A stretch of DNA of 64,000 nt from Sipunculus nudus (Eukaryota; Annelida; Sipuncula; Golfingiida; Sipunculidae): contig CM049308.1 in NCBI GenBank assembly GCA_026874595.1, forward strand, positions 11,807,501 to 11,871,500, read 5' to 3'. A program made the position numbers and the translations under genes. Of this stretch, positions 7,620 through 64,000 are shown one piece after another. The first letter of the stretch is position 1. Every line of letters starts with the position of its first letter. The notes beneath the pieces are model-generated. The model was not told the origin of the DNA. It did no database searches and saw only the letters and a list, made by a program, of their open reading frames with translations.

Positions 7620-10600
7620 CAAGTGACCCATGGGTCATGACGCTCAGCTGACTGGGAAGAGATTCACAAAAGGAAATTTTATCATCAGAATGGTAGTATA
7701 TACTCGTTCAACTGAAGCATCAAACAGATTAACCAACAGACCAAGATTAAGTCTGTATTTATATATCTATAAATAGAGAAAAAATGTGTAAACTTTAAAA
7801 ACTAGAACATGGGTAGCCCACAAGTGACTGTGTATCCGCCAAAATCAGAGTGGAACGGGTGAAGTGAGGCATGGATTGAGTGGCAAGGGGAAAAAAAGTG
7901 AGGTATGTTGCATATTAGCATGAATGTCTGCAGCCTGAATGTGTATGTAGGTTGTGCCACCTACTACAAATCCAGAAAGCTGTTCAAGTTGTATACATAT
8001 GCGAAATTTTAGGCAGAAAAGTCAAACCACTACATGTGTATGAGTGATTATAGCCCACGGCAGACAAACAGACAGACGCTGTGCAAAAATTATTGCAGTT
8101 GGCCCCTACAGTTTTGTGTATGATAAAGACCTGTGTGAGATCTAAACACAAACACAATTTTGGCCAAATTAGTCAAACGGTTCCTGAGATATGAGCTTGG
8201 ATTTGTGCAGCGTTAACTAGAATTTAGGTGGCGCCACCTGTCATAAAATCAAGAAAGCTGTCCAGGATGCATAAACCTGCAAAATTTTAGGCAGTCATGT
8301 CAAACCACTACAGAAAAATGAGTGATTTTAGGCCTCAGCAGACAAACAGACAGAAGCTGTGCAAAATTTGAAAAATGGTTGCAGGTAGCCCCTCCAGTTT
8401 TGTGTATGATAAAGACCTATGTGAGATCTATACACATGCAAAATTTTGGCCCAATCGTTCAAACGGTTCCCGAGATATGAGCTTGGATGTCTGCAGCGTA
8501 AACTAGAATGTAGGTGGCGCCACCTGTCATAAAATCAAGAAAGCTATCCAGGATGTATAAAGCTGCAAAATTTTAGGCAGATACGTCAAACCACTGCTGA
8601 GATATGAGTGACATTACCCCATGGCAGACAAACAGACAGACGCTGTGCAAAAATGGTTGCAGGTGGCAACTCTAGTTTTGTATGATAAAGACCTATGTGA
8701 GATCTAAACACATACACAATTTTGGCCCAATCAGTCAAACTGTTCCTGAGATATGAGCTTGGATGTGTGCAGCGTTAACTATAATTTAGGTGGCGCCACT
8801 TGTCATAAAATCAAGAAAGCTGTCCAGGTTGTATAAACCTGCAAAACTTTAGGCAGTTATGTCAAACCACTACAGAGAAATGAGTGATTTTAGGCCTCAA
8901 CAGGCAAACAGACAGCTCTGTGCAAAAAAAATTGCAAGTAGCGCCACCATTTGTTGTGTATGTTATAAAGCTATCCAAGGGCTACATTTGTATAAATTTT
9001 ATTTCCTGATCAGTCAAACAGTTCCTGAGATATGAGCTTGGATGTGTGCAGCGTTAACTAGAATGTAGGTGGCGCCACCTGTCATAAAATCAAGAAAGCT
9101 GTCCAGGATGTATAAACCTGCAAAATTTTAGGCAGTTATGTCAAACCACTACAGAGAAATGAGTGATTTTAGGCCTCAGCACACAAACAGACAGACGCTG
9201 TGCAAAATGTGCAAAAATGGTTGCAGGTAAAGACCTATGTGAGATCTATACACATGCAAAATTTTGGCCCAATTAGTCAAACTGTTCCCGAGATATGAGC
9301 TTGGATGCCTGCAGCGTAAACTATAGTGTAGGTGTTGCCACCTGTCATAAAATCAAGAAAGCTATCCAGGATGTATACGCATGCCTAATTTCAGGTGAAT
9401 TAGTCAATTCACTGCAGAAATATGAGTGATTTTAACCCAAGGCAGATGAACACTGTGCAAACATGGTTACAGGTGGCGCCACCATTTTTTGTGTATGTAA
9501 TGAAGCTATCCAAGGGCTACATTTGTATAAATTTTATTTCCTGATCGGTCAAACGGTTCCCAAGATATGAGCTTGGATGTCTGCAGCATGAACGTGAATA
9601 TAGGTGGTGCCACCTGTCATAAAATCAAGAAAGTTATCCAGGATGTATAAGCATGCCGAATTTCAGGTGAATTAGTCAATTCACTGCAGAGATATGAGTG
9701 ATTTTAACACAAGGCAGATGAACAGATGGACACTGTGCAAACATGGTTACAGGTGGCACCACCATTTTTATGTATGTTATGGACCTATCCAAGGGCTACA
9801 TTTGTATAAATTTTATTTCCTGATCGGTCAAACGGTTCCTGAGATATGAACTTGGATGTCATCAATGTGAACGTGAATATTTGTTGGCGCCACCTGTCAT
9901 AAATTCAAGAAAGCTATCCAGAATGTACAAGCATGCCGAATTTCAGGTGAATTAGTCAATTCACTGCAGAGATATGAGTGATTTTAACCCAAGGTGGTGA
10001 ACAGATGGACACTGTGCAAACACAGTTACAGGTGGCGCCACCATTTTTGTGTATGTTATAAAGCTATCCAAGGGCTACATTTGTATAAATTTTATTTCCT
10101 GATCGGTCAAACGGTTCCTGAGATATGAGGGTTTATGTGATGAAACAGACGCACAAATGGACACTGGGCAGACAGGAAAGGTCAGAGGTCAACGCAAATT
10201 GGTTAGGCACCAGTTCACATGTGACCCGATAATTGGTGCAAGTTTCAGAAAAATCGTGTTGTAGTTATTGAGATACTGCAGTTTTTGTATCAAATTTTCC
10301 ATTATTCTGGGGGGGTATTTTGGAGTCATACAGCTTAAAGAATATGGGTAACAGAGACCTTATTTCAGGCTTCCATGGAGACTTTTCATGGGTCTCCCTG
10401 TGTGTCAAGAATGAAGATTCTAGGTCCAGTCTTTATGATTTGTGCCCTGTTAACAGATGTTCATATCTTAAAAGGTTTCAAAAATAGAGAAAAAATTTGT
10501 AAAAAAACCCGAACAAATACAGGTGGCACCACCAGTCTGCATAAACTGATGAAACACTCCATGATCAATACTTGAATGCCAAAAATCATGACCATCAATG

Positions 10601-11543
10601 ATGTAGTTAATGAGATATTGAAGTTTTTGTATGAAACTTTTGACTATTCTTGGGGGTACTTTGGGGCCCCATAGCTCGAAGGATATGGGTAACAGAGACC
10701 TAATTTCTGGTTTACATGGAGACTTTTCATAGGTCTCTCAGTGTGTTGAGAATGAAGATTCTAGGTTCAGTAGTTGAGATTTGTGCCACGCTAACAGATG
10801 ACAGCATCCTTAAAGGTCTGAAAAATAGAGGAAAAAATCATTTAAAAAATCGAACAATATAGGTGGCGCCACCAGTCTGCAGGAATTGATGGAACATCTC
10901 ATGATCAATATGTATGCCAAAAATCATGACCATCAGTGATGTAGTTATTGAGATATTGAAGTTTTTGTATGAAATTTTTGACTATTCTGGGGGGTACTTT
11001 GGGGACCCATAGCTTGAAGGATATGGGTAACAGAGACCTAATTTCTGGTTTCCAAGGAGATTTTTCATGGACCTCTCAGTGTGTCAAGAATTAAGATTCT
11101 AGGTCCAGTCTTTACGATTTGTGCCTTGTTAACAGATGTTCACATTTTTAAAGGTCTCAAAAATAGAGAAAAAAATTCGTAAAAATAAAAAAATACAGGT
11201 GGAGCCACCAGTCTGCAGGAAGTGATGGAACATCTCATGATCAATATGTATGCAAAAAATCATGACCATCAGTCAAGTAGTTAATGAGATATTGAAGTTT
11301 TTGTATGAAATTTTTTACTTTTCTGGGGGGTATTTTGGGGCCCCATAGCTCAAAGGATATGGGTAACAGAGACCTAATTTCTGGTTTCCGAGGAGATTTT
11401 TCATGGACCTCTCAGAATCCCAAGATACATGGTTCTAAGTCCAGTGGTTACAATTTGTGCCCTGTTAACGGACAGACGGCCGGACAGACGACGGACAAAG
11501 AGTGATCGCTATAGCTCAGATGACTTCCAGTCAGCTGAGCTAA
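7620..11543 (+). mobile_element. Pearl-like element A with two internal satellite arrays
   Basis: The start is CAAGTGACCCATGGGTCA, containing the 14-bp perfect palindrome TGACCCATGGGTCA. Next comes an array of about eight ~278-bp units (near 7860-10140), marked by 'gagatatgagcttggatg' and the palindrome GGTGGCGCCACC. A second array has about four ~339-bp units (near 10300-11400), marked by 'ggatatgggtaacagagacc'. A GACAGACGG microsatellite and a terminal hairpin (11512-11542, 14-bp stems TAGCTCAGATGACT / AGTCAGCTGAGCTA with one mismatch and a 3-nt loop) close the element, which ends CTAA. No protein is encoded. The layout matches bivalve pearl-like elements, probably mobilised in trans. Confidence 0.8.
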
Positions 11544-13587: not shown

Positions 13588-14018
13588 AGCTAAGGGCTCA
13601 AAGAAGCTCATATTTTGGTAGTCTTGATTAGATAGATTTTGATAATTTAAATCAACTGGTCTGATTATCTATTTAATATCAAGCTTAAGCTGCTTAAGTG
13701 CATAGCATACTAAATATGTTGTATGTTAAAATACAAATATATATATACATAAACAAGAAACAGAGCTTTTATTTAGAAATGGTATACAAAGAAAAATGAA
13801 CGTATTGTCAATACGTATCAGTATCGAATTAACTTTATCGCAATACGTATTGTATCGGAAGAGGCGAACCGATACCCAGCCCTACTCTTTACACTTGCAC
13901 AAAAGCACTTCTACACATTTAAAACCTGTCTAATGAAACTTCACATTGATAAAGAACCAACAGTAAAAGCAGCCATAGCTTATAAATTTATTGTTAAAAC
14001 TGTAATACATGTAGAATT

Positions 14019-17000
14019 TCATGATTTATATTTCACTGGATTTTCAAAATAAGCATTGTATTTTCTCCACTTGTAATTGCTCTCCAATGATGTCGTGATT
14101 TCCCCTCCAGGCAAGTCTGTTTTCAGTTCTGGCATCAGACCTACAAATATACAGCAAACAGGGGTTAAAATTCACACAATCTACTTAAACAGCAACGAGA
14201 GGTTCACAAACTTCACAAACTTAACAGATAAACAGCAAGCAAGGGATACAATTTATACAACAGTTATACAGCAAACGGGGGTTAAAATTCACACAATCAA
14301 CTTTTACAATAAAGAGAGGTTAAACTTCACAAAATTAACAGATAAACAGCAAACAAGAGAAACAATTTATACAACAGTTATACAGCAGACAGGGGTTGAA
14401 ATTCACACAACAGTTATACAGCAAACAGGGTTGAAAGTCTTACAATGAACAGCCCTTCAGATAAACAGCAAACAGGTTAAAATGTGCACAACAGTTATGC
14501 AACAAACATAGGTTGAAATTCACACAATGAAAAGCCTTTAGATAAACAGCAAACAGGCGGTAAAATTCATACAATAAACATTTATTCAGTGAACAGGCAT
14601 TAAATTTCACTCAACAGTTGAACAAAGGCAGGGTTCGAATTTCACACAATGAACAGACCTACAGAATACAGCACACAGGTAAGGTTGAAATTTACATAAT
14701 TTTACAAGTCCTCATTCAGAAATATAAACAAGTGACCCATGGGTCATGACGCTCAGCTGACTGGGAAGAGATTCGCAAAAGAAATTTTATCATCAGAATG
14801 GTAGTATATACCCATTCAACTGAAGCATCAAACAGATTAACCAATAGGCCAAGATTTAGTCTGTATTTATATATCTCGAAAATAGAGAAAAATGTGTAAA
14901 CTTTTAAAACTAGAATACGGGTAACCGACAAGTGACTACATGTATCTGCCAAAATCGGATAGTGAGGCATGGATTGAGTGGCAAGGGGAAATAGAGTGAG
15001 GTATGTTGCATATTAGCATGGATGTCTGCAGCCTAAATGTGCATGTAGGTTGTGCCACCTACCACAAATCCAGAAAGCTTTCCAAGTTGTATACACCTGC
15101 AAAATTTTAGGCAGAAAAGCCAAACCACTACATGTATATGAGAGATTTTTGCCCATGGCAGACAAACAGACAAACACTGTGCAAAAATCTTTGCAGGTAA
15201 CCCCTCCAGTTTTGTGAATGATAAAGACCAATGTGAGATCTAAACACATGCACAATTTTGGCCCAATCGGTCAAATGGTTTCTGAGATATGAGCTTGGAT
15301 GTGTGCAGCGTTAACTAGAATGTAGGTGGCGCCACCTGTCATAAAATCAAGAAAGCTGTCCACGATGTATAAACCTGCAAAATTTTAGGCAGTTATGTCG
15401 AACCACTACAGAGAAATGAGTGATTTTAGGCCACGGCAGACTAACAGACAGACGCTGTGCAAACATTGTTACAGGTGGCGCCACCATTTTTTGTGTATGT
15501 TACAGAGCTATCAAAGGGCTACATTTGTATAAATTTTATTTCCTGATCGGTCAAACGGTTCCCAAGATATAAGCTTGGATGTCATCAGCGTGAACGTGAA
15601 CATAGGTGGCGCCACCTGTCATAAAATCAAGAAAGCTATCCTCGATGTATACGCATGATGAATTTCAGGTGAATTAGTCAATTCACTGCAGAGATATGAG
15701 TGATTTTAACCCAAGGCAGATGAACAGATGGACACTGTGCAAACATGGTTACAGGTGGCGCCACCATTTTTTGTGTATGTTATAAAGCAATCCAAGGGCT
15801 ACATTTGTATCAATTTTATTTCCTGATCGGTCAAACGGTTCCCGAGATATGAGGGTTTATGAGTGGAAACAGACCCACAATTGGACACTGGATAGAGAGG
15901 AAAGGTCAGAGCTCAACGCAAATTGGTTAGGCACCAGTTCACATGTGACCCGATAATAGGTGTAAGTTTGGGAAAAATCGGTCCATTAGTCTCCGAGGAG
16001 CTCTCTGGAAACGAACGCCGCCGCGGTGGAGGAACTCCGTCAAAAACATAGTATCCGCAAAACTTCGTTTTGGCGGATACAAAAATACAGGTGGCTCCAC
16101 CAGTCTGCAGAAACTAATAAAAACACTTAATGGTCAATATCCATGCAAAAAATCATGGTGATCTCCCCATTAGTTGTTCAGATACTTCAGTTTTTGTATC
16201 AAATTGTCCATTATTCTGAGGGATACTTCGGAGTCCTATAGCTTGAAGGATATGGGTAACAGAGACCTAATTTCAAGTTTCCACAGGCACCTTTCATGGG
16301 CCTCCTTGCATGACAAGAATGAAGATTCTAGGTCCAGTTGTTGCGATTTGTACCCTGTTGACAGATAACCACATCTTTAAAGGTCTCAAAAAAAAGAAAA
16401 AAATTCGTAAAAATTTGAAAAAAAATAGAAGTGGCACACCCAGTCTGCAGAAACTGATGGAACAGCTCATGATCAATATGTATGCCGAAAATCATGACCA
16501 TCAGTGTTGTAGTTATTGAAATACTGCAGTTTTTGTATCAAATTTTCCATTATTCTGGGGGGGGGGGTATTTTGGACCCATACAGCTTAAAGAATATGGG
16601 TAACAGAGACCTAATTTCAAGTTTCCATGGAGACTTTTCATGGGTCTCCCTGTGTGTCAAGAATGAAGATTCTTGGTCCAGTTTTTATGATTTGTGCCCT
16701 GTTAACAGACGTTCATATCTTTAAAGGTCTCAAAAATACAGAAAAATTTCGTAAAAAAAACCGAACAAATACAGGTGGTGCCACCAGTCTGCAGAAACTT
16801 ATGAAACACTCCATGATCAATATCCATGCAAACAATTATGGTTATCTCTGCATTAGTTGTTCAGATACTTTAGCTTTTGTATCAAATTTTCCATTATTCT
16901 GAGCTGTACTTTGGAGTGCCATAGCTCAAAGGATATGGGTAACAGAGACCAAATTTCAGGTTTCCATGGAGACTTATCATGGGTCTCCCTGTGTGTCAAG

Positions 17001-20000
17001 AACGAAGATTCTAGGTCCAGTCGTTACGATTTGTACCCTGTTGACAGATAACTACATCCTTAAAGGTCTAAAAAATTGAGAAAACAATTCGTGAACATTG
17101 AAAAATACAGGTGGCGCCACCAGTCTGCACAAACTGATGAAACATCTCATGATCAATATGTATGTCGAAAATCATGACCATCAGTGATGTAGTTAATGAG
17201 ATATTGAAGTTTTTGTATGAAATTTTTGACTATTCTGGGGGGTAATTTTGGGCCCCATAGCTCGAAGGATATGGGTAACAGAGACCTAATTTCTGGTTTA
17301 CATGGAGACTTTTAATAGGTCTCTCAGTGTGTCGAAAATGAAGATTCTAGGTCCAGTCGTTACGATTTGTGCCACGCTAACAGATGACAGCATCCTTAAA
17401 GGTCTCAAAAATAGAGGAAAAAATCGTAAAAAATCAAACAGTACAGGTGGCGCCACCAGTCTGCAGGAACTGATTGAACATCTCATGATCAATATGTATG
17501 CCAAAAATGAAGACCATCAGTGATGTAGTTATTGAAATATTGAAGTTTTTGTATGAAATTTTTTACTATTCTGGGGGGTACTTTGGGGCCCCATAGCTCG
17601 AAGGATATGGGTAACAGAGACCTAATTTCTGGTTTCCAAGGAGATTTTTCATGGACCTCTCAGTGTGTCAAGAATTAAGATTCTAAGTCCAGTCTTTATG
17701 ATTTGTGCCTTGTTAACAGACGTTCACATTTTTAAAGGTCTCAAAAATAGAGAAAAAAATTCGTAAAAAATCGAAAAATACAGGTGGCGCCACCAGTCTG
17801 CAGGAAGTGATGTAACATCTCATGATCAATATGTATGCCAAAAATCATGACCATCAGTCAAGTAGTTAATGAGATATTGAAGTTTTTGTATGAAATTTTT
17901 GACTTTTCTGGGGGGTACTTTGGCGCCACATAGCTCGAAGGATATGGGTAACAGAGACCTAATTTCTGGTTTCCAAGGAGATTTTTTATGAACCTCTCAG
18001 AATCCCAAGTTACAAGGTTCTAGGTCCAGCGGTTACGATTTGTGCCTGGTTAACGGACGGACAGACGGACAGACGGACGACGGACAAAGAGTGATCGCTA
18101 TAGCTCAGATGACTTTCAGTCAGCTGAGCTAAAAATGATTTTTTGTATAAGCACAAATTTCACAGCAATGCACAGCATTTTGAAATTACATGTAACATAT
18201 TGATATTTTGTATGATGCAAGAGGACTGATATTATTATTAATGGCTCTGACAAGAATATATACCATAACTGATGGCTCTGTCAAGTCAAAATAAAATTAA
18301 ATATGATTTTCAGGTTTAAGATTATTCTCTATCTGTACCACACAAAATCATATTGCAGCAAAGATTTAGTCAAACAGGACACTTAAAGGCAAAGTAAATG
18401 AAGCCTTTCTGTTGTCTTCATCAAGACCACCCAGTAATTCTACTACTGGAGATCCATGAGAGCAATGCTACCAGGCAAAATTTAATTATATTTCACTGAG
18501 GCTCATACAAAAATATTAGTTTTTAATCATTTATCCCCAAAGCCATTTAAAAATTTTAATATTGCTGTAGATTCTTGCCTAATACTCAGCCATGATATTA
18601 TCAATATCAGTTGTAGAATCCTTCCTGAAATTGATAATCAATGACAACAATTCTAAGGAGAGACCAATCTTTGTTACAGGTAGGGTTGGGACCTATGATC
18701 TATTCAAGTCTATGGTCTATCAGCAGATGCAGATAATCTGTTGATCAATCTTGCATAGCCAAAATTTATTACAGAGTTTTTCTTTTTATAAGGTTAGGCT
18801 TTATAATGACTGAAAGTATGCTTAAATAAAATCTGAGAACAAACTTGAGGACAACCTGGTTTTTCTAAACAGATTTCAACCCAACTTTACTATATACACA
18901 TGTAGGCTACAGTTATCAGATATATTGGCCAATATTTAGGCCTATATATAAATTGAAAGGATGTACAGGCCTATATTTCATAAAATAAAATTTCACACTC
19001 CTAGAGTTTAGCAATTTTTACTGTATATTTGATCATAAAATTGCAACTGATTTCCCAACACTTCTCAAAAAGGACTAATAATTGATCACCAGCTGCTGAT
19101 ATACAGCTGATGATCAATCGTGACTCCCAACACAAGTTAATATCAAGACTGAATGTTCTGCTGATTCTGTAATTACCTGCACGTTTGGCCTGGTGGACCA
19201 TTTTTGCTAGACGTGACTGGGCTTTCCCACACAGTCCAGTGACTTGTCTTGACAGTATTTCGCCATCTGGTTGTAAAAACTGACTGATTATCATCACATC
19301 CTGCAGAAAACAAAATGTAAAACACCCTGTTACAAATCATCCATACGCAAAAGGTGAATTTCTCAGACTTTTATGTAGTACTTGTATACTGAAGTTGGAT
19401 TTATTTTCATGAGGCAAGGGTTTCATTTTTCATGATTTATCCATTTTGCAATTTTCCCGATTGCACCAGAACCTATAAAAATCTGAGTTAGGCAGTATTT
19501 GCATTTATAATAAAATAAAAATAAATCCCACACCTCACTCATTTTTGTTACAGTAATTATATTATGACCTGTGTTAGACTCAACATTTCCCCAGTGAAAA
19601 ATATAAATATCTCTTGCACAACTGGATCTATTCTTTTTCCATTAATTTGCAGTTTCCTTGTAATCACTAAGTAAAAACAGTATACATTTGTACTGAATCA
19701 ATTTAAAGTATTATGTAATATTACACTATTATGTTATGAATTTTAAATATGGTTATCTGGCTATCTATTGCTATAAAATAAATAGGGCAAAAAGGTTCAC
19801 AAACTTATTTGTGCATTGCCCTTGCATATCATGAATTGGTTCGTTTTGTGAGTTGCCTGGCAACACAGCCCTCACAAATACCTACCTGCAATATGTGCAA
19901 CAGAGACAGTACTTACTGTGTACTGGATATCATAATCCAGCTTCTTGGGACACAGTGGACAGAGACAGTACTTACTGTGTACTGGATATCATAATCCAGC

Positions 20001-23000
20001 TTCTTGGGACACAGTGGACAGAGACAGTACTTACTGTGTACTGGATATCATAATCCAGCTTCTTGGGACACAGTGGACAGAGACAGTACTTACTGTGTAC
20101 TGGATATCATAATCCAGCTTCTTGGGACACAGTGGACACAGACCTTTGGGGTTGTCAATACTGGCGAGTTTGTCCACCAACTTCTCTGAACAATTTGTTT
20201 TTATTTTGATTCCTTCAACCTGCAAACAAAGACAAGACCCATCTCCAAATGTCAAACAATGACCTTTAATGACAGATGTAGTGATAACTCTGATATTACA
20301 CTGGCACAACTCTGAACAATCATTTTTTATTTTAACTATCTCAAACTCTGAATAAACAAACATCTAATTTAATAAGAATGATTTATATATGTAATACATG
20401 AAAACACCTTGTTGCTTACTTTTTACAATGGGATTTAAGAACTTGGACAAGACCCATATCCAAACATCAACCAAGAACTTTTAATGATCGTTATGGTGAT
20501 ATTACACAGGCACAACTCTAAACAATCTGGTTTGATTTTATCTCAGCCTCTGAACAAACAAGCAAATTCTTTGGAGCTGGCGATAATAAATTTTCAGACA
20601 GTCACTCCAAAACAAATCCCAACCAAGGTATGCATGAGAGCAATCTGTGACCAAATTCAAATGAAATCGGATAATATTCAGGAAAGTTATCGCATGGAAA
20701 CAAAAACCTGACGGACAGACAGACAGATGGACAGACTAACAAACCCAAATGAATGTCCCCCCTTGCGTGGAAGCATGATTTATATCAGTAATACATGGTA
20801 ACATGGGGTTGAAGAACTTTGACCACTGATATGTTTGAAAATGCTAAAATACATTGTGTATGTTCAGTGGAACCAGTCTTTAAGACCACCAATATATTGT
20901 GAGGGTTTGCCCTTGCTTGTAAAATATTATTTCCATGGACGGGAGAAGTATTGTTGTTTACACTGGATGAAATAAACGCGATAGGCGTTAACAGTACTAA
21001 CAAGGGAGTAAAGCCGATTGCCCGGCAAGCCACCACTTCAGGAGCTGAAACGATGTCAAATTTTGTCATAAAACGCCAGTATTTACCTAAGAAATTTTTG
21101 TCAGGCGTTCAGGGAGGTAAAGCGAATCGTGTGGTCCGATAATTATACAGAAATCCCTTTAATTCCATCCAGAATACACCGGCAGACGCTGGAATTGCAA
21201 TATTCTTTCGTCAGCAACGGACTGCCTTGACCTAGTTGTCAGGTCGTCACGCATGCGCTCGTGTAACCAGGTCATGTTTACGTCCGATGACCACGTGGTC
21301 CCTCCAAAAATGCATAAAAAGAGGCCGAGCGGGCCAGAAGGGAACCATTTGCTCAAGTCGACTCAGACGAGCTGTGTCAGCCAGCCGACTTGCGGTGACG
21401 GCTGCATCATGCAGATGACCAAGGTAGCCACACACCTTATTTGGGCAATAATAGCAGTTAAAATACCGGGAATCACTTGGTATATACCGGTAAACAAAGC
21501 TCCAGATGCAGGCATAAGCATCCCATGTGACGTCCCATACCAATGACAGCTCAGTATGAACCCGGTGACCCCATACCGACCCAGACCATACCGATGACAG
21601 CTCGGTATAAACCTGATGACCTCATACCGACCCCATACCAGAATGTACCCAGACGACCCCAAGTATACCGTGCCCGTATAGGAATGATAGAGAGAAGAAC
21701 ATAGCTTTCTTAGACCAGGGATTGAAGTTTTATTCGTACATCACAAGTGAAGCAATAGAAGTGCAGCATAACTACCGGCCATACACATGCATGAATATTG
21801 ATGGGACTTTCATTTGAGGAATAAAAGTTTGAAGTTAAACCGCTCGGAGTTGCATCTTGACTGGAGTGATCTGTGCTTGCTAGGGAAAGAGAAAAAGAAG
21901 GAGAGAGAGAGAGAGAGAGAGTAATCACCCTAGCAACTTAAAACTGGTGTCAGAAACCTGCAACACCCCCCCCCCCCCCCCCCCCCCCCATTTTTGGTGT
22001 CGGAAGCTTAAACCCCCACATTTCCTGTGTCGGCAGCACAGACCCCCACAATATTAAGACCACCATTCAATAAACTCTCACATTAGTTATGACTGACATG
22101 ACTAATAAGGACACCTGTGAATAAGACAACTTAAATTGACCAATCCCAAACAGTGGTTTTATTGCACAAGTTCCACTGCATATCTGAAAGGAAGCTTCCC
22201 GATGGCTCTGAAAAAAGCAAGAACTACCAAATCACATATGCTCTTTATGCAAAGTAAAGAAAAACGAATTAAAAAAGTCAAATATGTGGACCCAAACCCT
22301 GTGCGAAGTTGGGTGCTCTGCTCAAAGAAAGTATCTCGAGACAGTACCCTGGATTGTTTGACATTAACCGATACTGTCCCTGAGAACTTTTTTCAGTGGC
22401 ATTTTGATATTGCTGCCCTTGATAAAATACAAAATGATCAGCACATATAACCAGGCTACCCATTCACCTACTTTCAGTTTTCCAGGAAACAGCATGTAGT
22501 AAGACATGAAAGATCGTGCTTCATGCCCTGAATAGTGCGTTATGGTCACGTTATATGCCCCCAATGGTAAACAGTGCTGCCAATATTCATAAAACACTAA
22601 TCTACTTTATTTATGGAGGGATTCACACCAAAGTTTAATCACTTTGAGATCTTCACACTCGAGATCTATATATTAAATTTAAATCATTCCATGGTACTGT
22701 TCTTAAGATTACTTGCAGATACACACACACACACACACACACAGAATCAACAAAGAAAAATGTGCATGGCAATTAATAAATTCTCATTCTCAATGTCCCT
22801 TGAAACTTCAATCTCAAATAATCTGAATTATAACTTTATGCACTATACTGACAGTAATCTATGCTAATACAGGATACAATTCAGTTTCTAACAGATATGT
22901 AAAATAGCTACTCACCACTGTTGTATCATTTTCTGTTTTAATGGAAACTGAAAGCAAATATATGTGAAGGTGTACTGAACAGGTATATCAGAAAATTGAA

Positions 23001-29000: not shown

Positions 29001-30400
29001 TCATGAATAATACTTATGAGTAAATTATAATATATGGCTTCAATAAGTCCTTTATAAGTTTATGACTATATCTTTTAAGGTTTTAACAAATTTGCCTATG
29101 GAAGTTATGGAAACAATATTTACTATAATTTATTTGGAACAATAATCAGAGGACAACTTTTCTCATATCAATAAGGTCAAGGACAGGGTCATGTGACAAA
29201 AGATAAACATGACCGCATGGCAGGCTAAAAAAAAAACACAGGAGTTGAAATTTTTTTACAATTTCCTTATAAGGGCACTTCTACATAATTTATTCTTACT
29301 CCAGAACAGTTTATTAGCCATTACTGGTAAGAAATTTGCTAAATTACCTCCATTTTCTCTGTTTATTTTGCAAATATCCCAACATACCCCTGCTACGCTT
29401 TTCCATAAGAGGATCCCCATAACTGAAATCTCATTTCAGTTATGAACCCATAACAAATGTACATATTATTATATAACATATAAAAACATACATTTTATCC
29501 ACACACAAAACCTCCAAAAAGAACTCAAGACTTGCCGCATCCGCGTATAAGGTATCTTTAATTTAATGAGTACCTGGTCACTGTACAAAAACATACATTT
29601 TATCCACACACAAAACCTCCAAAAAGAACTCAAGACTTGCCGCATCCGCGTATAAGGTATCTTTAATTTAATGAGTACCTGGTCACTGTACTTTGCAGTA
29701 TTACTGAATAATCAGTCAAATGTCACTAATTAAGTAATTTTCACTTATTTATGGAACCAGTGCCTTTTAAAAATTCTTGGCATTTTGTTTTCTTTTAATT
29801 TTACTAAGGGTTAAAATATAAAAAAATTTTGAGCAAGTATAAAATCCAGTCTACAATAGTACATGGACAAGGTTATGGGGGTATACGGACGGACGTAATG
29901 CTGTTTAGGATTCATTTAATGGAGAAGTAAAGAAGCATATTGATGATGTCATATCATCAGGCATGTCATGGCTGATGTTGATTACTACTAATATGAGACG
30001 GTCAGTTTAGACCCATCTTGGAAATAAATGCCGGATTCTATACTCTGGCAAAAAATATATATTACCGAATCATACTCTAACAGAATGTAACGATTGTCAC
30101 ATTCTATAATGATAGTAACCTATATAGTGATCAGAGGTAAAAACTGATAATAGTGACACTGATATCATATAGTGATAATGAGACATGCCTCAATATGGGC
30201 GATAATTAAAGCAATTGTAGATACTTACTCTCTTTCAACCGGTGTACTGCTGTTCGAGAGAAATGTCTGACTGAAGTGTCACTGTTGTCACTGTTATGTA
30301 AGATGGCTAGCGCCGGCGTGACACATTGTCTCTTTAAATACAGTGTTTTTGCCACAGACTTTGTGTAATTTAAGGTTCTTGCCAAGGTCGCCGTGGCCAT
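14019..30400 (-). CDS. MRPS18A: Mitochondrial ribosomal protein S18A (mL66), five exons, complete
   Basis: This bS18-family protein is part of the mitochondrial ribosome; in mammals the S18A paralogue sits in the large subunit as mL66. Minus-strand exons are 30400-30229 (ATG 30400-30398), 22947-22916 (32 nt), 20219-20094, 19300-19177 and 14140-14019 (TGA). They total 576 nt, or 191 residues, against about 196 in human. All introns are GT-AG and phases (1, 0, 0, 1) agree. Residues 1-57 look like an import peptide (basic, Ser/Thr-rich, few acids). CPLC at 96-99 is the zinc-type pair. 'VMIISQFLQPDG' and 'TGLC' with 'VHQAKRAGLMP' are the family core. The short final exon was found by splice phase plus an open frame to the stop. 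A minus-strand AATAAA lies at 13992-13987. Introns 1, 2 and 4 are full of transposons, and the exon 3 donor is tandemly duplicated. Confidence 0.92.
14150..14700. repeat. Degenerate short tandem array in MRPS18A intron 4
   Basis: Segments like 'cagcaaacaggggttaaaat' and 'tcacacaat' recur every 30-90 bp. The open plus-strand frame across part of it is a by-product of the repeat, not a gene. It ends just before element B. Confidence 0.7.
14729..18132 (+). mobile_element. Pearl-like element B, sibling of element A
   Basis: It has the same start (CAAGTGACCCATGGGTCA), the same two unit types, the same GACGG-type microsatellite (about 18052-18090) and the same 31-nt terminal hairpin (18101-18131, loop TTC) as element A, again ending CTAA before an A-rich flank. 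Copy numbers differ: about three ~278-bp units (near 15285, 15563, 15843) and about six ~339-bp units (near 16249, 16591, 16931, 17267, 17608, 17939). It lies inside MRPS18A intron 4, antisense to the gene. A short unique GC-rich insert (about 15980-16075) separates the two arrays. Confidence 0.8.
18133..19176. other. MRPS18A intron 4 remainder
   Basis: AT-rich unique sequence between element B and exon 4. The intron begins GTAATT (minus strand, at 19176). No further element recognised. Confidence 0.5.
19301..19900. other. MRPS18A intron 3, unique part
   Basis: Intron between exon 4 (acceptor CTGCAG at 19301-19306 on +) and the 59-bp tandem array. Nothing else recognised. Confidence 0.5.
19901..20136 (-). 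repeat. Four perfect 59-bp tandem copies carrying the exon 3 splice donor
   Basis: Four identical 59-bp units start at 19901, 19960, 20019 and 20078. Read on the minus strand each unit contains the last ~41 bases of MRPS18A exon 3 (CCCAAGAAGCTGGATTATGA onwards) and the donor ACACA|GTAAGTACTG. The exon-proximal unit supplies the real exon end at 20094. The other three lie in intron 3 and carry identical donors starting at 20034, 19975 and 19916. Perfect identity implies a very recent expansion. Confidence 0.95.
20220..20780. repeat. Tandem repeats with GACAGACA tail in MRPS18A intron 2
   Basis: A segment starting 'acaagacccat' at about 20231 recurs at about 20448, giving a ~218-bp unit. Each copy holds 'ttaatga', 'gatattacac', 'ggcacaactct' and 'aacaat' in the same order. 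The array runs into 'cggacagacagacagatgga' near 20712. This is the usual satellite-plus-microsatellite order of pearl-like elements, but no palindromic start was found. The array directly abuts the exon 3 acceptor. Confidence 0.6.
20781..22915. other. MRPS18A intron 2 remainder
   Basis: Mixed intron sequence. About 20950-21680 is unusually CpG-rich for the window and has short repeats of the type 'cataccgatgacagctcggt' (21540-21650). A GA tract lies near 21900, a C homopolymer of about 24 bases near 21966-21989, and an AC microsatellite at 22721-22742. No exon of a second gene could be established. Confidence 0.5.
23059..24999 (-). mobile_element. Pearl-like element D (reverse orientation)
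   Basis: On the minus strand it starts CAAAGGACCCATGGGTCACT near 24999 and ends near 23059 in a TAGCTCAGTTGACT / AATCAGCTAAGCTA hairpin followed by A. A CAGACGGACAGACGG tract lies just inside (rc of about 23109-23130). The interior is AT-rich and similar in places to element C ('aaggaac', 'ctaatttt'), with no clear array. It sits in MRPS18A intron 1 in sense with the gene. Confidence 0.7.
25739..29455. repeat. Dispersed repeat, copy 2, split by element C
   Basis: Bases 25739-25836 and 28991-29455 align in order with window positions 1 to ~90 and ~90 to 551. The split falls within an A run: four A at the left junction, five at the right, nine A in the uninterrupted copy. It lies in MRPS18A intron 1. 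Confidence 0.85.
25837..28990 (+). mobile_element. Pearl-like element C, with a known empty site
   Basis: It begins CAAGGGACCCATGGGTCA and ends in a 31-nt hairpin (28959-28989, stems TAGCTCAGATGACT / AGTCAGCTGAGCTA type, loop TAT-like) after a long GACGGACAGACGGACG tract (about 28888-28945). The interior has two ~660-bp units (near 27641 and 28302), marked by 'agattaaatccttatg' and 'ctaatttttgg'. Comparison with window bases 1-551 shows the insertion exactly. No coding capacity. Confidence 0.85.
29482..29691. repeat. 105-bp perfect or near-perfect tandem duplication
   Basis: The block starting AAAAACATACATTTTATCC occurs at 29482 and again at 29587 with no visible difference across 105 bp. 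It lies in MRPS18A intron 1 directly after the dispersed repeat. Confidence 0.9.
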
Positions 30401-35143: not shown

Positions 35144-36430
35144 AAGTTCAGTGTGTACATCCATGGCAACTGGAGGGGGGCAAATTTGGTGACTGGGGCG
35201 TCGGATGACATCGCAACCCATGTTTTGAAATAGTTGCTTGAAGCTGGGTACAAAGTCCGAGGCATGGTGCGTAGTATATGAAGCATTAGAAAAAAAAAAC
35301 AACCCCGGCCTCCATGACATATATTGAGTCTGATAAGCGATAGCTATACACAGGCGCGAATTGAAGGGGGGGGGGGGGGGCCTTGCCATGCCCTCAACCA
35401 ACCACCCTTTTTTTAGACAAATTTTATTCATGACGGGGGGTTTTGGGGGGTCGAGAGCCCCCCCCCCCCCCTCCCCAACCAACGACCTCTACCCTGCAAA
35501 AATTCTGGATCCGCGCCTGGTACAATGAGTGTTTTTACAATATAAGCCCCAGACTACACACCACCCAATGCGCTTGTAAACAGTGTCAACAGGTGTTTAT
35601 TACCCCGTGCCAGCGTGTCACTCTTCAGAGCTGGGCCCGTTGAAACAAAATGTAACAAACTTCTAGCTGTCAATCACTTTATATGGCAAGGCCTAATATA
35701 ATTGAGTCTTATAAATCGGACTCGGAGGGAATTAACCCTGTCAGTGCTGAGGGCTCATAAAGCTGCAGGTGCAGTCAAAAGGGTGGTCTTAACTATTTCC
35801 ACGGCGTCTGCGGCATACTCGGCCACGAATGGTAAAATCTGCTCAGAGCAAGACTGGACTGACGAAGATGACATACGAAGAAAGTTGAAAGCAGAGAGGG
35901 CAGCTTGGACGTTTATGGAAGAGCTGGGAGAAATAGAAAAATTTGAATTAGCTCTGATCGTTAATTGATTTGTGATGGGACCTCCCTGTGTGCGACAATG
36001 TCGACCAGCATGGAAATCCCGAAACAGCTCATGCAACGAGAGATTCCAATGTTAGCTAGAATAAACTTTTCAGTTTGTGACGTCAGAGTTGTCGCCGTCG
36101 CCCATCTCAGAGCGATGACGATACCCGAGGCAGCGGGTCACCGTCACATCATCGCCAACGGATCGTTTTGCTCAGTGAGCTTGCTGCTATTATCGATTAT
36201 TCCCAACCAAAAATGTTTATTACATCTGTCAGGCATTTTGGACAAGACAGTGAAGGCGACTAGGAGATCTTGGAAGACAACAGACGCGACGGCTCGTAAG
36301 AGTCACGGGTATCAACCAATTTTCTCTGGATAAGACCATTATCGACGTGCTATAGTTTGGTAAACGCTGGTTACATCAGGAAAACTCCCTACGAGCAATT
36401 TGAGGACCGACCTTGCACTTCGAAAGCGAG
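35144..36430 (+). pseudogene. Unprocessed pseudogene of the DFR-like SDR gene
   Basis: This broken copy of the 62390-63469 gene is in the same orientation. It keeps the 5' UTR splice acceptor (TTTCAG at 35138-35143) followed by 19 nt and then ATGGCAACTGG (35163), exactly the spacing of the intact gene (19 nt, ATG 62390). So it arose by DNA duplication, not retrotransposition. The coding match runs to about 35285, is interrupted by ~440 bp of unrelated sequence that replaces ~195 coding bases, and resumes at about 35727 ('ctgtcagtgctgaggg') to near 36420. Damage includes frameshifts, an early stop at 35279-35281 in the first block, and an 18-nt deletion near 35870 that removes the catalytic Tyr region. 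Confidence 0.88.
35351..35519. mobile_element. C/G-rich MITE inside the SDR pseudogene
   Basis: It starts CAGGCGCGAATT and ends AATTCTGGATCCGCGCCTG, giving imperfect inverted ends. The interior is two G/C homopolymer-rich arms (about 35367-35382 and 35459-35472). No clear target duplication. It accounts for part of the sequence that splits the pseudogene. Confidence 0.55.
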
Positions 36431-38437: not shown

Positions 38438-39455
38438 ATGCCTCTGAGAAAGCGCAAAGCCCCTCGTCGCCTGGTGGAAGAGGACTTGTCGGCTTCACGC
38501 AAGCAGGGTCGTAGAAGGTCTGCATGCATGTGTGCGGGATGCAGATACGCAGCCGACACCCTCCACTTCTCCATCGTCTGATACTGGGCTGTCCAATGCA
38601 CAATTTCAGGCTTTAGTTTCTGCCATATCGGACAAGGTCGGCTCTGACATGGATACAAGAATGGAAGATTTCCTCCAGTCCAAGGGCCTCCTTAGTTCAG
38701 CCTCTGGACCAGCTGACCAGGTTGCTAACAGTGTAGCCACAACGGTATCAGGTGAGACACCCCCTACCCCGTCGTGTGATGCTGTTACTGACCTGGTTGA
38801 CGAGGTCATCAACATCGCTGATCGTGTTGACCAAGCCCTTCGTGATGCCATCTGGCGGGGAGAGTTCATTGAACTCCACTTGCTGCTTAGTCTGTCCCCC
38901 TTTTACAACATCACAAAACGAGCCGCCCCTGGAGACAAAACCGATACCAAACCCCGCTTGCTCAATATCAGTGAGTGGTCATGGGCCTTTCATGTCTACA
39001 TGGCTGTGTATTGCCTGAACCAGGCTAAAGCTTCAGAAGCATCTGCTATGTGTACATACATGGAAGCCATACGTGCTTTGTATAATAATGGCAATGATTG
39101 GGCAACATATGACATTGAATTCGGCAAGCTTCGCGCACGGACTGCGAGGCACTGGGATAGGCGACATAGGGATCTTTGGATGGAGGCCTTAACTCTGAGG
39201 GGTTCTGGTCAAACAAAAAACAATTATAGATCCTCAAAATCCTCTTTGCCCTTTCGTAAACAACTCTCAACCAACCCCTGTTGGGCTTACAACAAGGATA
39301 GATCCTGTGCCCGCCAACCCTGTCCATTTGTGCACAAATGTACCATTTGCGGCAAACAAAATCCTGCCAGAAATTGTTACATGCAAGAGCACTCCACCCA
39401 ACAGAATCCGTCATTCACGAAATCTGCCCCATCCGCAATACAAATACCAGGCTAA
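38438..39455 (+). pseudogene. gag-like protein of the YR retrotransposon
   Basis: A likely start ATG at 38438 gives a basic N-terminus (MPLRKRKAPRRL). A frameshift near 38520 moves reading into the 307-residue frame starting at about 38532. That frame has 'MEDFLQSKGLL', a conserved 'WSWAFHVYMAVYCL' and 'WDRRHRDLWMEA' region, and a C-terminal Cys/His cluster (CWAYNKDRSC, CPFVHKCTICG) likely to bind nucleic acid. It is the capsid-like ORF of the element. Confidence 0.75.
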
Positions 39456-39539
39456 ATAATTTTAACAGATCCCCAGTCGCCTTACCTGCCAGTCCCCCTG
39501 CCATTTCCAGGGCCACAAGCAAGTTCCCATTCAAGTCCA

Positions 39540-41129
39540 ATGTCTTGCCCTCCATCAGCCGTGCCCGATAATGCCTTTCTTCCAACTCCAGTGTGCCATG
39601 ACATCTTTGGCCACATGTTACAGAAATATAGCTACCCTAGACACCTCACAGCAGAACTTATACATGGATTCTCTAAAGGTTTTAGCTTAGGGTTTATTGG
39701 CACACCCAACAATCTTTGTCCCAAGAACCACAAATCAGCCTTAGCTCAACCAGAAATTGTAAATAAAACATTAGACAAAGAAAAGTCATTTGGCCGAATA
39801 GCAGGCCCTTTTCAACAGAAACCCTTTACATCTTTTCAAATATCCCCATTAGTAGTGGTCCCTAAAAAGCAACCGAACAAGTTCCGTTTGATTCACAATT
39901 TGTTTTACCCTGAATTCTACTCTGTTAATGCAGGAATCCCTCGTGATGCATCGTCGGTGTCATATGCTTCCATTCAAGATGCCATAGACCATCTACAGCC
40001 TTTAGGAACTAAAGCCTACCTAGCCAAAACTGATATATAAGCTGCATTCCGGCTTATACCCATATGCCCCAAATTCCACCATTTATTAGGTTTTCATTGG
40101 CAGGATCAGTATTATTATGATAAATGTTTATCAATGGGTTGCGCATCATCATGCAACATCTTTGAAAAGTTCAGCTCAGCTTTAGAATTTGTTGCTTCCA
40201 AATTATGTCAAATGGGTGCTATAGTTCATGTTCTGGGTGATTTTCTATTTATCAATGATAGCCCCGCCAAAACAAAGGCTATGCTCAGTGCATTTTTCTC
40301 ACTCTGTGAATCTTTAGGTGTACCTATAGCTCATGAAAAAAAACGAGGGTCCATCTCAAATTCTCATATTTTTGGGTATTGAATTAGATATAAAATCTCA
40401 ATCTGCTAGGTTGCCTGTTGACAAAATTATGAAAACCAAACACATGATCAATACCTATCTGTCTAAAGATAAAATAACTCTCCGAGAGCTGCAGTTCTTG
40501 ATTGGATTTCTCAATTTTGCCTGTGCAGTTGTGCTTCCAGGCAGGGCATTTTTGCGACGCTTATTGATAAGACCAGAGGCTTGTTGAAACCACATCATCA
40601 CACCAGATTAAATAAAGAAGTCAAATTAGATCTAAAATTGTGGCTTGAATTTTTAGAGTATTTCAATGGCAAATGTTTCTTTTTGGACGAAGACTGGCCC
40701 AATTCAGATTTGTTAGAGTTATACACTGATGCTGCTAAGGGTCTTGCTTTTGGTGCACTTTTTGGCCCTCAGTGGTTTTATGGAGAATTCCCCTCTAAAT
40801 GGAGCAATTATAACATTGTAACTCTAGAACTATGGCCTATTGTTTTAGCCCTGGAAACGTGGGGCTCACAACTAGCCAAAAGAAAGGTTCTAATTTTTAC
40901 TGATAACCAAGCATTGTTTTTTATTTTGAATAAACAGTCTACACCAGAACCCACCATAATGTATCTTGTTCGACGCTTTGTATTAGCGACATTGCGTCAT
41001 AATATCTTGTGCAAGGCACAACACATTCCCGGCCGTCTGAATTCTAAAGCTGATGCTTTATCCCGTTTTATCCCAACTGCGAACCTAACCCCAACTCAGA
41101 TCCAATCACTTCCTTCGACCCTGAATTAG
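39540..41129 (+). pseudogene. Reverse transcriptase/RNase H of the YR retrotransposon
   Basis: Conserved blocks appear in order: FRLIHNL, LAKTDI, AAFRLIPI, GCASSCNIFEKFSSALEF, the palm motif HVLGDFLFI, then RNase H motifs LYTDAAKG, LELWPIVLALETWG, FTDNQALF and SKADALSRF. It is dead: TAA at 40038-40040 between TDI and AAF, a frameshift in an eight-A run near 40336, and a second frameshift near 40570 that restores the frame. One of the two catalytic Asp of the palm motif is Gly (LGD for LDD). Confidence 0.88.
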
Positions 41130-41999
41130 TTCAACTGGGGAAACATCTCATCACCAACAGTATATCAGCAAACTCCATAAGAACCTATTCTCGGGGCTGG
41201 GATTCATTCAAGGCCTTTTGTCAACTACACGGTCATCCAGACTTGGCCATTATTCCTGTCACCTCATGGACCATATTTTTGTTTTTGTCTGATAAATTTA
41301 GATTATGCTCTTCTGGCAGCACTCTGACTTCTTTAGCATCAGCAATTGCCTTTCCTCACAGACTTGCCAACAAGCCTGATCCAACGGCCACTGAGATCAT
41401 CCGCAGGCTCCTTGCTGGTGCTCGCAGACTTACTCCTTCTGTTGATTTGCGTTTCCCTATCACTTATTCTGTCTTATACCAATTGCTATCTGCCCTGAAA
41501 CACACCGTTCAGTCCATTTACCTGAGGAGTCTGTTCTCTGCTTTATACCTCACTTGTTTTCATGAGTTAGCGAGCTGATCCCTTCCAGTAAGTATGTAAT
41601 ACACAGTGTCATCCTGGTGTCTGATATATCTTTCTCTTGTGACAAAAATTCAACAGCTCGCATCACACTTCGTCATAGTAAAAATATGCCATTGGGTCGT
41701 TGTCAGATCATTGTAATTCAGTCCAAAGCTGCAGGTCCTTGCCCTGTTGCTTCACTTCATAAATTCTGCAAATCTCGAGGAAGCCTTCCTGGGCTCCTTT
41801 TTGGATCTCCCTCTGGATGCCCTATATCCCGTGCTGAATTTAGCAGTCAACACGTGATCTTCATTTTTGTAACCTTGACACCCAGAAATTTAAAGGCCAC
41901 AGCTTTAGGACTGGAGCTGCCACAGAGGCATCAAGAATCTTGGCCGTTGGAAATCAAATGCATTTAAAAAATATATCAGATTAAACATGGCTCATTGAA
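41084..41999 (+). pseudogene. Tyrosine recombinase of the YR retrotransposon
   Basis: It starts in a frame overlapping the end of RT/RNase H. The N-terminal core-binding-like part reads 'ANSIRTYSRGWDSFKAFCQLHG'-type sequence, and the frame stops near 41578. The C-terminal part follows after frame changes. The catalytic box GHSFRTGAATEAS (H-x-x-R, about 41893-41931) and then GRWKS with the likely Tyr in KKYIRLN (about 41945-41985) are visible in different frames. The first catalytic Arg region looks deleted around 41560. It would have inserted circular cDNA without integrase. Confidence 0.85.
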
Positions 42000-62235: not shown

Positions 62236-62389
62236 CAAAAAAAAGTGCCTGAAAACTTTATACTTTTTTGGCCTTAGTTCTCCTTTATACCTGGCACTTG
62301 TATCTACATGGTAACAACAAAAATGTCTATGATATGAGAATGCTCACCAAAATTTTTCTCTTTTTTTTAGAATTTAATTGGATACAGAT

Positions 62390-63469
62390 ATGGCAACGGG
62401 AGGTGGAACGGTTCTGGTAACAGGAGCCTCGGGTTACATCGCAACTCATGTTGTAAAACAATTACTTCAAGCTGGTTACAAAGTCCGCGGTACTGTACGT
62501 AGTTTGAAGAATGAGAAAAAGGTACAGCCCCTACGTGACATCTGTCCTGAAGCCAAGGGCGCCTTGGAACTAGTTGAGGCGGACTTGATGGACGAAAGCT
62601 CATGGGTTCCCGCAGTAGAGGGTTGTGATTTTGTGATGCATTTAGCAAGCCCATACCCTGCTACTAATCCGAAGACAGATGACGAATTAATCAAACCTGC
62701 TGTTGAAGGAACACTGTCAGTGCTGAGGGCTTGTAAAGCTGCAGGTACAGTCAAAAGAGTAGTCTTGACAAGTTCAGTAGCGTCTGTTGCATATTCGGCT
62801 CCGAATGGTAAAATCTGCACTGAGCAAGACTGGACCGACGAAGATGACATGACCAACGGAGCTTACATACGGAGCAAGGTGAAAGCTGAAAAGGCAGCGT
62901 GGAAGTTTATGGAGTCTCTGGGAGAAGGAGAAAAGTTTGAACTAGCTGTGGTCAACCCAGGCTTTGTGATGGGACCTGCTCTGTGTGGGACAATGACCAC
63001 AAGCATGGAAGCCCCGAAACAGCTCATGCAAAACGAGATGCCAATGTTAGCTAGAATAAGCTTTGCACTATGTGACGTCAGAGATGTTGCTACAGCCCAT
63101 CTCAGAGCGATGACGATACCCGAGGCAGCCGGTCATCGCCATATCATCGCCAACCGATCGATGTGGCTCCAAGAACTTGCTGCTATTATCGATAAGGAAT
63201 TCCGACCACAGGGATATAAGGTCCCATCCAAAAATGCGCCTAAATGGTTACTGCGTTTGATAGGCCTGTTTGATAAAACAACGAAGCTGATGCTTCCAAT
63301 GATCGACAAAGAAATCTTAGTAGACAACAATCGGCTCGTGAAGGTCTTGGGTATCAACCCATTTCCTGTGGAGCAGACCATTATCGACATGTGCTATGAC
63401 ATGGTTGACTCGGGTCACATCAAGAAAACCCCGCAGTACAAATCCCGCGCCACCGGAGCACAGACCTAG
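62390..63469 (+). CDS. Dihydroflavonol-4-reductase-like NAD(P)-dependent reductase (extended SDR)
   Basis: A single uninterrupted frame of 359 residues encodes a cytosolic-type reductase with no signal peptide. Extended SDRs of the DFR/cinnamoyl-CoA reductase/Gre2 group reduce carbonyls with NAD(P)H. The Rossmann motif TGASGYIA is at 11-18. The basic RGTVRS at 33-38 after strand 2 suggests NADPH. The ASP pocket is at 86-88, catalytic Ser at 128-129, and the Tyr159/Lys163 pair in YIRSK. NPGFVMGP at 189-196 and a V-A-T-A-H-L helix near 233-238 are also typical. The length is normal (about 320-360). ATG 62390 is the first in-frame ATG, 19 nt after a TTTTTTTTAG acceptor, so the exon opens with a 5' UTR remnant. 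The KNWYCYGK signature of plant cinnamoyl-CoA reductases is absent and the substrate cannot be predicted. A broken duplicate lies at 35144-36430. Confidence 0.93.
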   Translation: MATGGGTVLVTGASGYIATHVVKQLLQAGYKVRGTVRSLKNEKKVQPLRDICPEAKGALELVEADLMDESSWVPAVEGCDFVMHLASPYPATNPKTDDELIKPAVEGTLSVLRACKAAGTVKRVVLTSSVASVAYSAPNGKICTEQDWTDEDDMTNGAYIRSKVKAEKAAWKFMESLGEGEKFELAVVNPGFVMGPALCGTMTTSMEAPKQLMQNEMPMLARISFALCDVRDVATAHLRAMTIPEAAGHRHIIANRSMWLQELAAIIDKEFRPQGYKVPSKNAPKWLLRLIGLFDKTTKLMLPMIDKEILVDNNRLVKVLGINPFPVEQTIIDMCYDMVDSGHIKKTPQYKSRATGAQT

Positions 63470-63555
63470 AACAATCCTGTAGGAGAAGAAGGAGACCAGA
63501 CTCTAAATTGTGTGTTGAAACATATCAAGGTGGTCTTTAAAATGCTATTCTTTTT

Positions 63556-63769
63556 CATGCGTTTGGGATATCCTTTCATAATCAGTGTCATGCGTTTGGG
63601 ATATCCTTTCATAATAAGTGCCATGCGTTTGGGATATTCTTTCATAATCAGTGCCATGCGTTTGGGATATTCTTTCATAATCAGGGCCATGTGTTTGGGA
63701 TATCCTTTCAAAATCAGTGCCATGCGTTTGGGGTATCCTTTCAAAATCAGTGACATGCGTTTCTGCATG
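63556..63769 (+). repeat. 33-bp minisatellite in the 3' flank of the SDR gene
   Basis: About six and a half units of 'catgcgtttgggatatcctt' plus 13 nt, period 33, start 87 bp after the stop codon. Since 33 is divisible by three, long open frames arise on both strands; they are not genes. Units differ by a few substitutions. Likely transcribed as 3' UTR. Confidence 0.9.
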
Positions 63770-64000
63770 ATATACTATCAGAATCAGATGTCTTTCTGTA
63801 AATACTCGGCGACCAATCAAGTAACATCATTTTCAGTTCAACTTTTTTTCAAACGTTTTATCAAACTTTGATAATACCCAGGCTCATTCCCTTTGACCTG
63901 ATGCTCCTCCATTTAATTAGACTGCAGTTGCACCTTTGACACTTTAGATGATAAGATGAAAATGTCAGCCTCAAAATATTGTGAGAAAATAAGAAATGAA

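What the first reader, a model, noticed from the sequence alone, without database searches (positions are those of the whole stretch)
19901..20219. Splice donor of MRPS18A exon 3 is tandemly quadrupled with its exon end
Four perfect 59-bp copies each carry the exon 3 end plus GTAAGTACTG. Only the exon-proximal donor (intron start 20093) keeps the frame. Using the next donor adds 59 nt and creates a TGA across the exon 4 junction (CA|G ATG TGA). The donors beyond that read a TAA at 20033-20031. The array is therefore a set of competing donors whose use yields early stop codons and probably nonsense-mediated decay. Copy-number change could tune expression of an essential mitoribosomal gene.
Basis: partly seen in the sequence, partly recalled or inferred. 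Interest (0 to 1): 0.78.

Follow-up and report, generated by a model that had tools for sequence, protein, structure and literature searches.

The report
Quadrupled splice donor in mitoribosomal gene
A 59-base piece holding the end of one exon and its splice donor sits four times in a row in a gene for a mitochondrial ribosome protein; only the first donor gives a working protein directly, and the array most likely reflects a recent copying accident, not an evolved switch.

Summary
Four identical 59-bp copies (42 exonic + 17 intronic bases) span the exon 3/intron 3 border of an MRPS18A (mL66) gene on the minus strand, with donors at 20093, 20034, 19975 and 19916. The frame claims hold: splicing from 20093 aligns without a gap at the junction to human mL66; the others meet stop codons. 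I extended the model to the stop codon (14019). A protein search of the assembly found no close second copy.

Donor use cannot be settled without RNA. Precedents conflict: identical tandem donors favour the first (PMC6783452), but a human MSH6 duplication across a donor gave no normal transcript in the carrier tested (PMC9818763). Repeats at exon-intron borders are a known kind. I read this as a recent, possibly variable tandem expansion; regulation by copy number is unsupported.

The parts
19900..20135 (-). array of four identical 59-bp units, each 42 nt of exon 3 end + 17 nt of intron 3 start
   Evidence: exact unit found in the assembly only here
20094..20219 (-).
   Evidence: reading frame, and match to mL66 without a gap at the D1 junction
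20088..20093 (-). donor D1 (GTAAGT), the only directly productive donor
20029..20034 (-). donor D2, gives TGA just after the exon 3/4 junction
19970..19975 (-). donor D3, reads the TAA at 20033-20031
19911..19916 (-). donor D4, +177 nt, in frame by length but reads the TAA at 20033-20031
19880..19885 (-). fifth site D5, CAG|GTAGGT: strongest U1 match of the window's minus strand, also acceptor-like (ratchet-like)
20031..20033 (-). in-frame TAA read by D3, D4 and D5 transcripts
20062..20063 (-). latent acceptor AG (CCCAAG|AAG) of copy 2; equivalents of copies 3 and 4 precede 20002 and 19943
   Evidence: recalled weight matrix; 234 of 3414 AGs score at least as high
19177..19300 (-). MRPS18A exon 4 (124 nt), donor at 19176
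14019..14140 (-). coding part of MRPS18A exon 5 with stop codon TGA at 14021-14019
22916..22947 (-). likely exon 2 (32 nt, donor GTGAGT at 22915)
   Evidence: frame, splice signals and a match of only its last few residues to mL66; weaker than exons 3-5

Best explanation
A recent tandem expansion of a 59-bp segment that happened to straddle the donor of MRPS18A intron 3. It probably arose by slippage or unequal exchange; a 3-base match (TGT) lies at the breakpoint. The first donor (D1) stays next to the real exon end and still yields the working mRNA. The three extra donors, and the presumably older strong site at 19885, divert some transcripts into forms with early stop codons. The array is thus a tolerated or mildly costly structural variant, possibly variable in copy number, not a dedicated control device. 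Shown: array, gene model of exons 3-5, frames. Inferred: origin, age, donor use, decay of stop-bearing transcripts, variability.
For: Four identical copies. Exact unit present nowhere else in the assembly. Breakpoint letters show the TGT match (my reading). Exons 3-5 are open and the only strong matches to the exon 3+4 protein in 1.43 Gb are this locus. A single mitoribosomal gene of this kind must make some correct mRNA if this allele is the only one (general knowledge). The D1 product aligns without a gap at the junction to human mL66. In a human reporter library, two identical consensus donors used the first predominantly (PMC6783452 section 7).
Against: The human MSH6 c.3936_4001+8dup, a 74-bp duplication across a donor, gave no normal transcript from its haplotype in the one carrier tested with a tag SNP. 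There the downstream copy was used over exon skipping at 7:1; in other carriers or samples exon skipping was the only aberrant form seen (PMC9818763 section 20; legend). As there, only the last copy here (D4) keeps its native downstream intron. D1 is the least accessible of the five sites in the predicted fold of the array (0.20 against 0.26-0.41). D5 pairs with U1 far better than D1 (-13.7 against -7.0), and in the PMC6783452 library the stronger of two unequal donors dominates. SRSF1 and hnRNP A1 can shift choice toward or away from the intron-proximal donor (PMC5585400 passages), so sequence alone does not decide.
Confidence: 0.5

Rival explanations
1. Hypomorphic or null allele: D4 (native intron context, nearest to exon 4), D5 or exon skipping takes most splicing, so the assembled haplotype carries a recessive loss of MRPS18A covered by a normal allele.
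For: Close human precedent MSH6 c.3936_4001+8dup: no normal transcript from the duplicated haplotype in the carrier tested. All five donors except D1 give early stops when joined directly to exon 4. D5 has the best U1 pairing of 3580 minus-strand GTs.
Against: No other strong MRPS18A match in the assembly by protein search; a collapsed or purged second haplotype would not show, and the DNA search for one did not complete. Reporter data favour the first of identical donors.
Confidence: 0.2
2. Intra-array or stepwise splicing rescues the frame: D1 joins the latent acceptor of copy 3 or 4 (intron 91-153 nt, 8 or 9 residues added in frame), or D1 joins the AG of CAG|GTAGGT at 19885 (208 nt) and the rebuilt donor then joins exon 4, giving the normal junction.
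For: Of 17 two-step paths through three kinds of internal acceptor (AAG and AAGAAG of each copy, and 19885) with first intron of at least 45 nt, 7 keep exons 3-4 open. Four of these add KLDYDIQYT or LDYDIQYT and join exon 4 in its normal frame, one restores the exact normal junction, and two end at D5 and read exon 4 out of frame. The 19885 site is the only one of 218 minus and 242 plus AGGT sites passing both U1 <= -10 and acceptor score >= 5 (thresholds set after seeing the site). Tandem repeats at exon-intron borders can form novel introns (PMC2812944 passages).
Against: 10 of the 17 paths meet a stop. The latent acceptor is weak (234 of 3414 AGs score as high). By eye I saw no good branch point. 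Ratchet points are described mainly from long introns (PMC8605326 passages), while this intron is about 0.8 kb.
Confidence: 0.12
3. A copy-number tuned splicing switch: the number of donors sets the fraction of transcripts lost to decay and is under selection.
For: Several donors of equal predicted strength, all but the first leading to stops, are present.
Against: No variation, expression or conservation data; identical copies suggest youth.
Confidence: 0.06
4. Assembly or consensus artefact that multiplied a single unit.
For: Perfectly identical copies; no raw reads seen.
Against: The assembly is contiguous (1.43 Gb in 153 contigs), which suggests long reads that would span 236 bp; assemblers usually collapse rather than expand repeats (general knowledge).
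Confidence: 0.08

Closest known systems
Human MSH6 c.3936_4001+8dup (PMC9818763)
   Same: Tandem duplication of an exon end plus intron start, doubling the donor; using the downstream donor reads a stop early in the retained intron piece.
   Different: 74 bp with 8 intronic bases, two copies, heterozygous disease allele with measured RNA; here 59 bp with 17 intronic bases, four copies, RNA unknown.
Internal tandem repeats at exon-intron boundaries in human duplicated genes (PMC2812944)
   Same: Tandem repeats across exon-intron borders that can change splicing and make new introns.
   Different: Those lie in genes of segmental duplications, with transcript evidence; here a gene with no close copy found and no RNA data.
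Intron gain by tandem duplication: potato RdRp, fission yeast SPOG_01682 (PMC4974935)
   Same: Duplication across a splice border, or multiple short tandem copies, supplying the missing splice signal.
   Different: Potato duplicated an intron-exon (acceptor) border and recruited a cryptic donor; here the donor border is duplicated and only a weak latent acceptor is present; no intron gain shown.
Recursive-splicing ratchet points (PMC8605326)
   Same: AG|GT site at 19885 resembling a juxtaposed acceptor and donor.
   Different: Intron of about 0.8 kb, no RNA evidence, no conservation test.

Membership tests
MRPS18A / mL66 | Ribosomal S18 domain | tested here: met
   PF01084 E 4.8e-14, 52.6 bits against cut-off 21
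MRPS18A / mL66 | Closer to mL66 (S18a) than to S18c or bacterial S18 | tested here: met
   mL66 chains E 1.8e-12 to 5.1e-12, S18c 7.5e-8 and weaker, bacterial 5.1e-5 and weaker (best 60 of 70 listed)
MRPS18A / mL66 | Intact coding frame | tested here: inconclusive
   Exons 3-5 open to a stop codon, exon 2 likely; exon 1 not located
Tandem duplication across a splice donor | Head-to-tail copies each with exon end and donor | tested here: met
Tandem duplication across a splice donor | Altered splicing in RNA | not testable with these tools
   no RNA data for this organism
Intron gain by tandem duplication | New intron spliced inside the repeat | not testable with these tools
   latent acceptor present but weak
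Recursive-splicing ratchet point | Juxtaposed acceptor and donor with good scores | tested here: met
   site 19885: U1 rank 1 of 3580, acceptor rank 74 of 3414, by recalled models
Recursive-splicing ratchet point | Cryptic RS-exon with its own weaker donor downstream (required according to passages) | tested here: inconclusive
   GTs at 19881 and 19875 have weak U1 pairing (-5.7, -4.9); farther sites were not examined for this
Recursive-splicing ratchet point | Use as a splicing intermediate | not testable with these tools
   no RNA data
Variable-number tandem repeat | Copy number differs between individuals | not testable with these tools
   one assembly only

The most novel reading that the evidence does not exclude
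The array changes the splicing route. By moving D1 from 31 to 208 nt away from a ready-made CAG|GTAGGT site, the expansion turns that decoy donor into a working ratchet point, so the correct mRNA is made in two steps that erase the extra donors. Repeat copy number would then decide whether recursive splicing is possible at all.
Probability: 0.07. Interest if true: 0.75.

Novelty: new member of a known kind. Interest (0 to 1): 0.4.

Why it matters
If the array is real and fixed, it is a natural test of how spliceosomes choose among four identical donors with identical flanking exon sequence, a question on which published results conflict. The only directly productive donor is the first, so transcript ratios in one RNA sample would read out the choice. 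It would also show how far a mitoribosomal gene without a close second copy tolerates mis-splicing, or expose a recessive allele in a reference genome.

Tried and rejected
Phmmer with exon 3 alone gave no MRPS18A; with exon 4 added it did. A stable fold as a special feature of the unit: rejected, z -1.04 as RNA and -1.15 as DNA for one unit. D5 as the normal donor: rejected, since joined to exon 4 it shifts the frame of the conserved S18 domain in the single-copy model and meets the TAA in the array. In the single-copy model its shifted frame stays open for 72 codons through exons 4-5 (chance about 0.014 with own codon use, 0.006 with uniform synonyms); I found no use for this and leave it as a curiosity. 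A scan for exon 5 with a pattern for the vertebrate start missed it; the low-stringency probe held the right hit. A retrocopy or close paralog that would record splicing: none among the 15 matches of the protein search, five of which are this locus; I recognised no host S18b or S18c among them either, so distant paralogs may be beyond that search. The search for papers holding both MRPS18A and mollusc returned none. Exon 1 was not found. The genome-contig scan with the bacterial S18 found no relative.

One search used starts off by one base for D5 and by two for the exon 4 donor; one search corrects both.

Full report
What is there. The minus strand carries an MRPS18A gene. Translating 20219-20094 and 19300-19177 as one reading frame gives a protein with a Ribosomal_S18 domain (PF01084, E 4.8e-14). 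Its best matches among solved structures are mL66/MRPS18A chains (E 1.8e-12), ahead of S18c (7.5e-8) and bacterial S18 (5.1e-5). The alignment to human mL66 crosses the D1 junction without a gap, which marks D1 as the ancestral donor; farther upstream in exon 3 the longer alignment has gaps. I found exon 5 at 14140-14019, ending in TGA, in a low-stringency probe and checked it in frame. Adding it and a likely 32-nt exon 2 raises the match to E 8.4e-17, though only the last few residues of exon 2 are aligned. AATAAA lies at 13992.

The array. Four identical 59-bp units, each 42 nt of exon end and 17 nt of intron start, run from 20135 to 19900. The junction between units shares three bases, TGT, with both parent sequences (letters, my reading). 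The unit is not found elsewhere in the window (14-mers) or, as an exact 59-mer, in the assembly (3 of 3 hits are in this array). G000 has 1,426,538,692 bases in 153 contigs. A protein search there gave 15 matches: five fall on this locus; eight lie on other contigs with E 0.0118-0.0156 and near-equal scores, of which one (L009) was read and is bacterial; two have E above 4. I therefore see no close paralog, retrocopy or second haplotype, but the DNA search meant to look for a haplotype did not complete.

Frames. D1 gives the normal protein. D2 adds 59 nt and stops at TGA, 117 nt before the exon 4/5 junction. D3, D4 and D5 stop at TAA 20033-20031, 179, 238 and 269 nt before that junction. By the usual mammalian 50-55 nt rule (recalled) all would be candidates for decay; this was not tested.

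First, CAG|GTAGGT at 19885 starts 31 nt past D4. Its pairing energy with a recalled U1 5' end is -13.7 kcal/mol, first of 3580 minus-strand GTs, against -7.0 for D1-D4 (rank 93, tied) and -10.8 and -8.1 for the exon 2 and exon 4 donors. It is the only CAGGTRRGT on the minus strand; the plus strand has three. Its acceptor score ranks 74 of 3414 AGs. Among 218 minus and 242 plus AGGT sites it alone passed a joint cut that I set after seeing it. It lies outside the repeat, so it presumably predates the array; before the expansion D1 and this site would have been 31 nt apart. Second, each copy has a latent acceptor, CCCAAG|AAG; in copies 2-4 it scores 5.62, and 234 of 3414 AGs score at least as high. 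Of 17 two-step paths examined, 7 stay open. D1 to the acceptor of copy 3 and on from D3, or copy 4 and on from D4, adds nine or eight residues in frame; D1 to 19885 and on from there gives the exact normal junction; two paths through D5 are open but read exon 4 out of frame.

Which donor wins. This is open. In a library of human tandem donors, two identical consensus donors used the first predominantly, and with unequal strength the stronger dominated (PMC6783452, section 7 and passages read). The nearest natural case, MSH6 c.3936_4001+8dup, gave no normal transcript from the duplicated haplotype in the one carrier tested by tag SNP, with downstream donor to exon skipping at 7:1 there; other carriers or samples showed only the skipped form as aberrant product (PMC9818763, section 20 and passages read). 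In DOK7, SRSF1 bound near tandem donors 11 nt apart suppresses the intron-distal one (PMC5585400, passages). Hicks 2010, whose title says that competing upstream donors enhance proximal splicing, was seen only as a reference and is not held. Predicted accessibility is lowest at D1 in the array (0.20; D2-D5 0.36, 0.37, 0.26, 0.41; single-copy model 0.37 for D1 and 0.33 for D5). These conflict, so I give 0.5 to a tolerated expansion with D1 carrying the gene and 0.2 to a loss-of-function allele.

Known kinds. Tandem repeats at human exon-intron borders that change splicing or form introns are described (PMC2812944, passages including part of the abstract). Duplications leading to intron gain are described across an acceptor border in potato and, within exons, in fission yeast (PMC4974935, passages and introduction) and discussed for Drosophila (PMC2891723, abstract and one section). 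Ratchet points rest on passages of PMC8605326. The listings of my searches on repeats and donors showed no title or abstract start about a four-copy donor array; they cover open-licence papers only, and most listed papers were not opened. I file it as a new member of a known kind.

Noticed in passing
G000 contigs C61, C62, C83, C89, C90, C72, C74, C77 (L009, on C61, read): Eight contigs of the assembly hold S18-like frames with near-equal scores. The one read, L009, carries ssb-rpsR-rplI-dnaB in a row, so bacterial sequence, perhaps from symbionts, is in the assembly. A scan of genome contigs with that S18 found no relative.
   Followed up: partly
63470-63871: A 33-bp array (63556-63762, 6.3 copies) lies shortly after a long ORF that looks epimerase/reductase-like by eye (62378-63469) and reads as an open 11-residue repeat, MRLGYPFIISA with variants.
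   Followed up: no
35965-36333: ORF resembling part of the 62378-63469 ORF (STSMEIPKQLMQ... against TTSMEAPKQLMQ...), possibly a decayed duplicate or paralog (by eye).
   Followed up: no
38448-41967: Run of ORFs that looks by eye like a retroelement with reverse transcriptase, RNase H and tyrosine-recombinase parts (label recalled, not searched).
   Followed up: no
29482-29691: Another perfect tandem duplication, 105 bp x 2.0 at 100%, so identical tandem copies are not unique to MRPS18A here.
   Followed up: no
7912-11469 and 15010-18059: Two blocks of roughly 280- and 336-bp tandem repeats; the 280-bp consensus units begin alike in both, the 336-bp ones were not compared. The second block lies in MRPS18A intron 4.
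   Followed up: no
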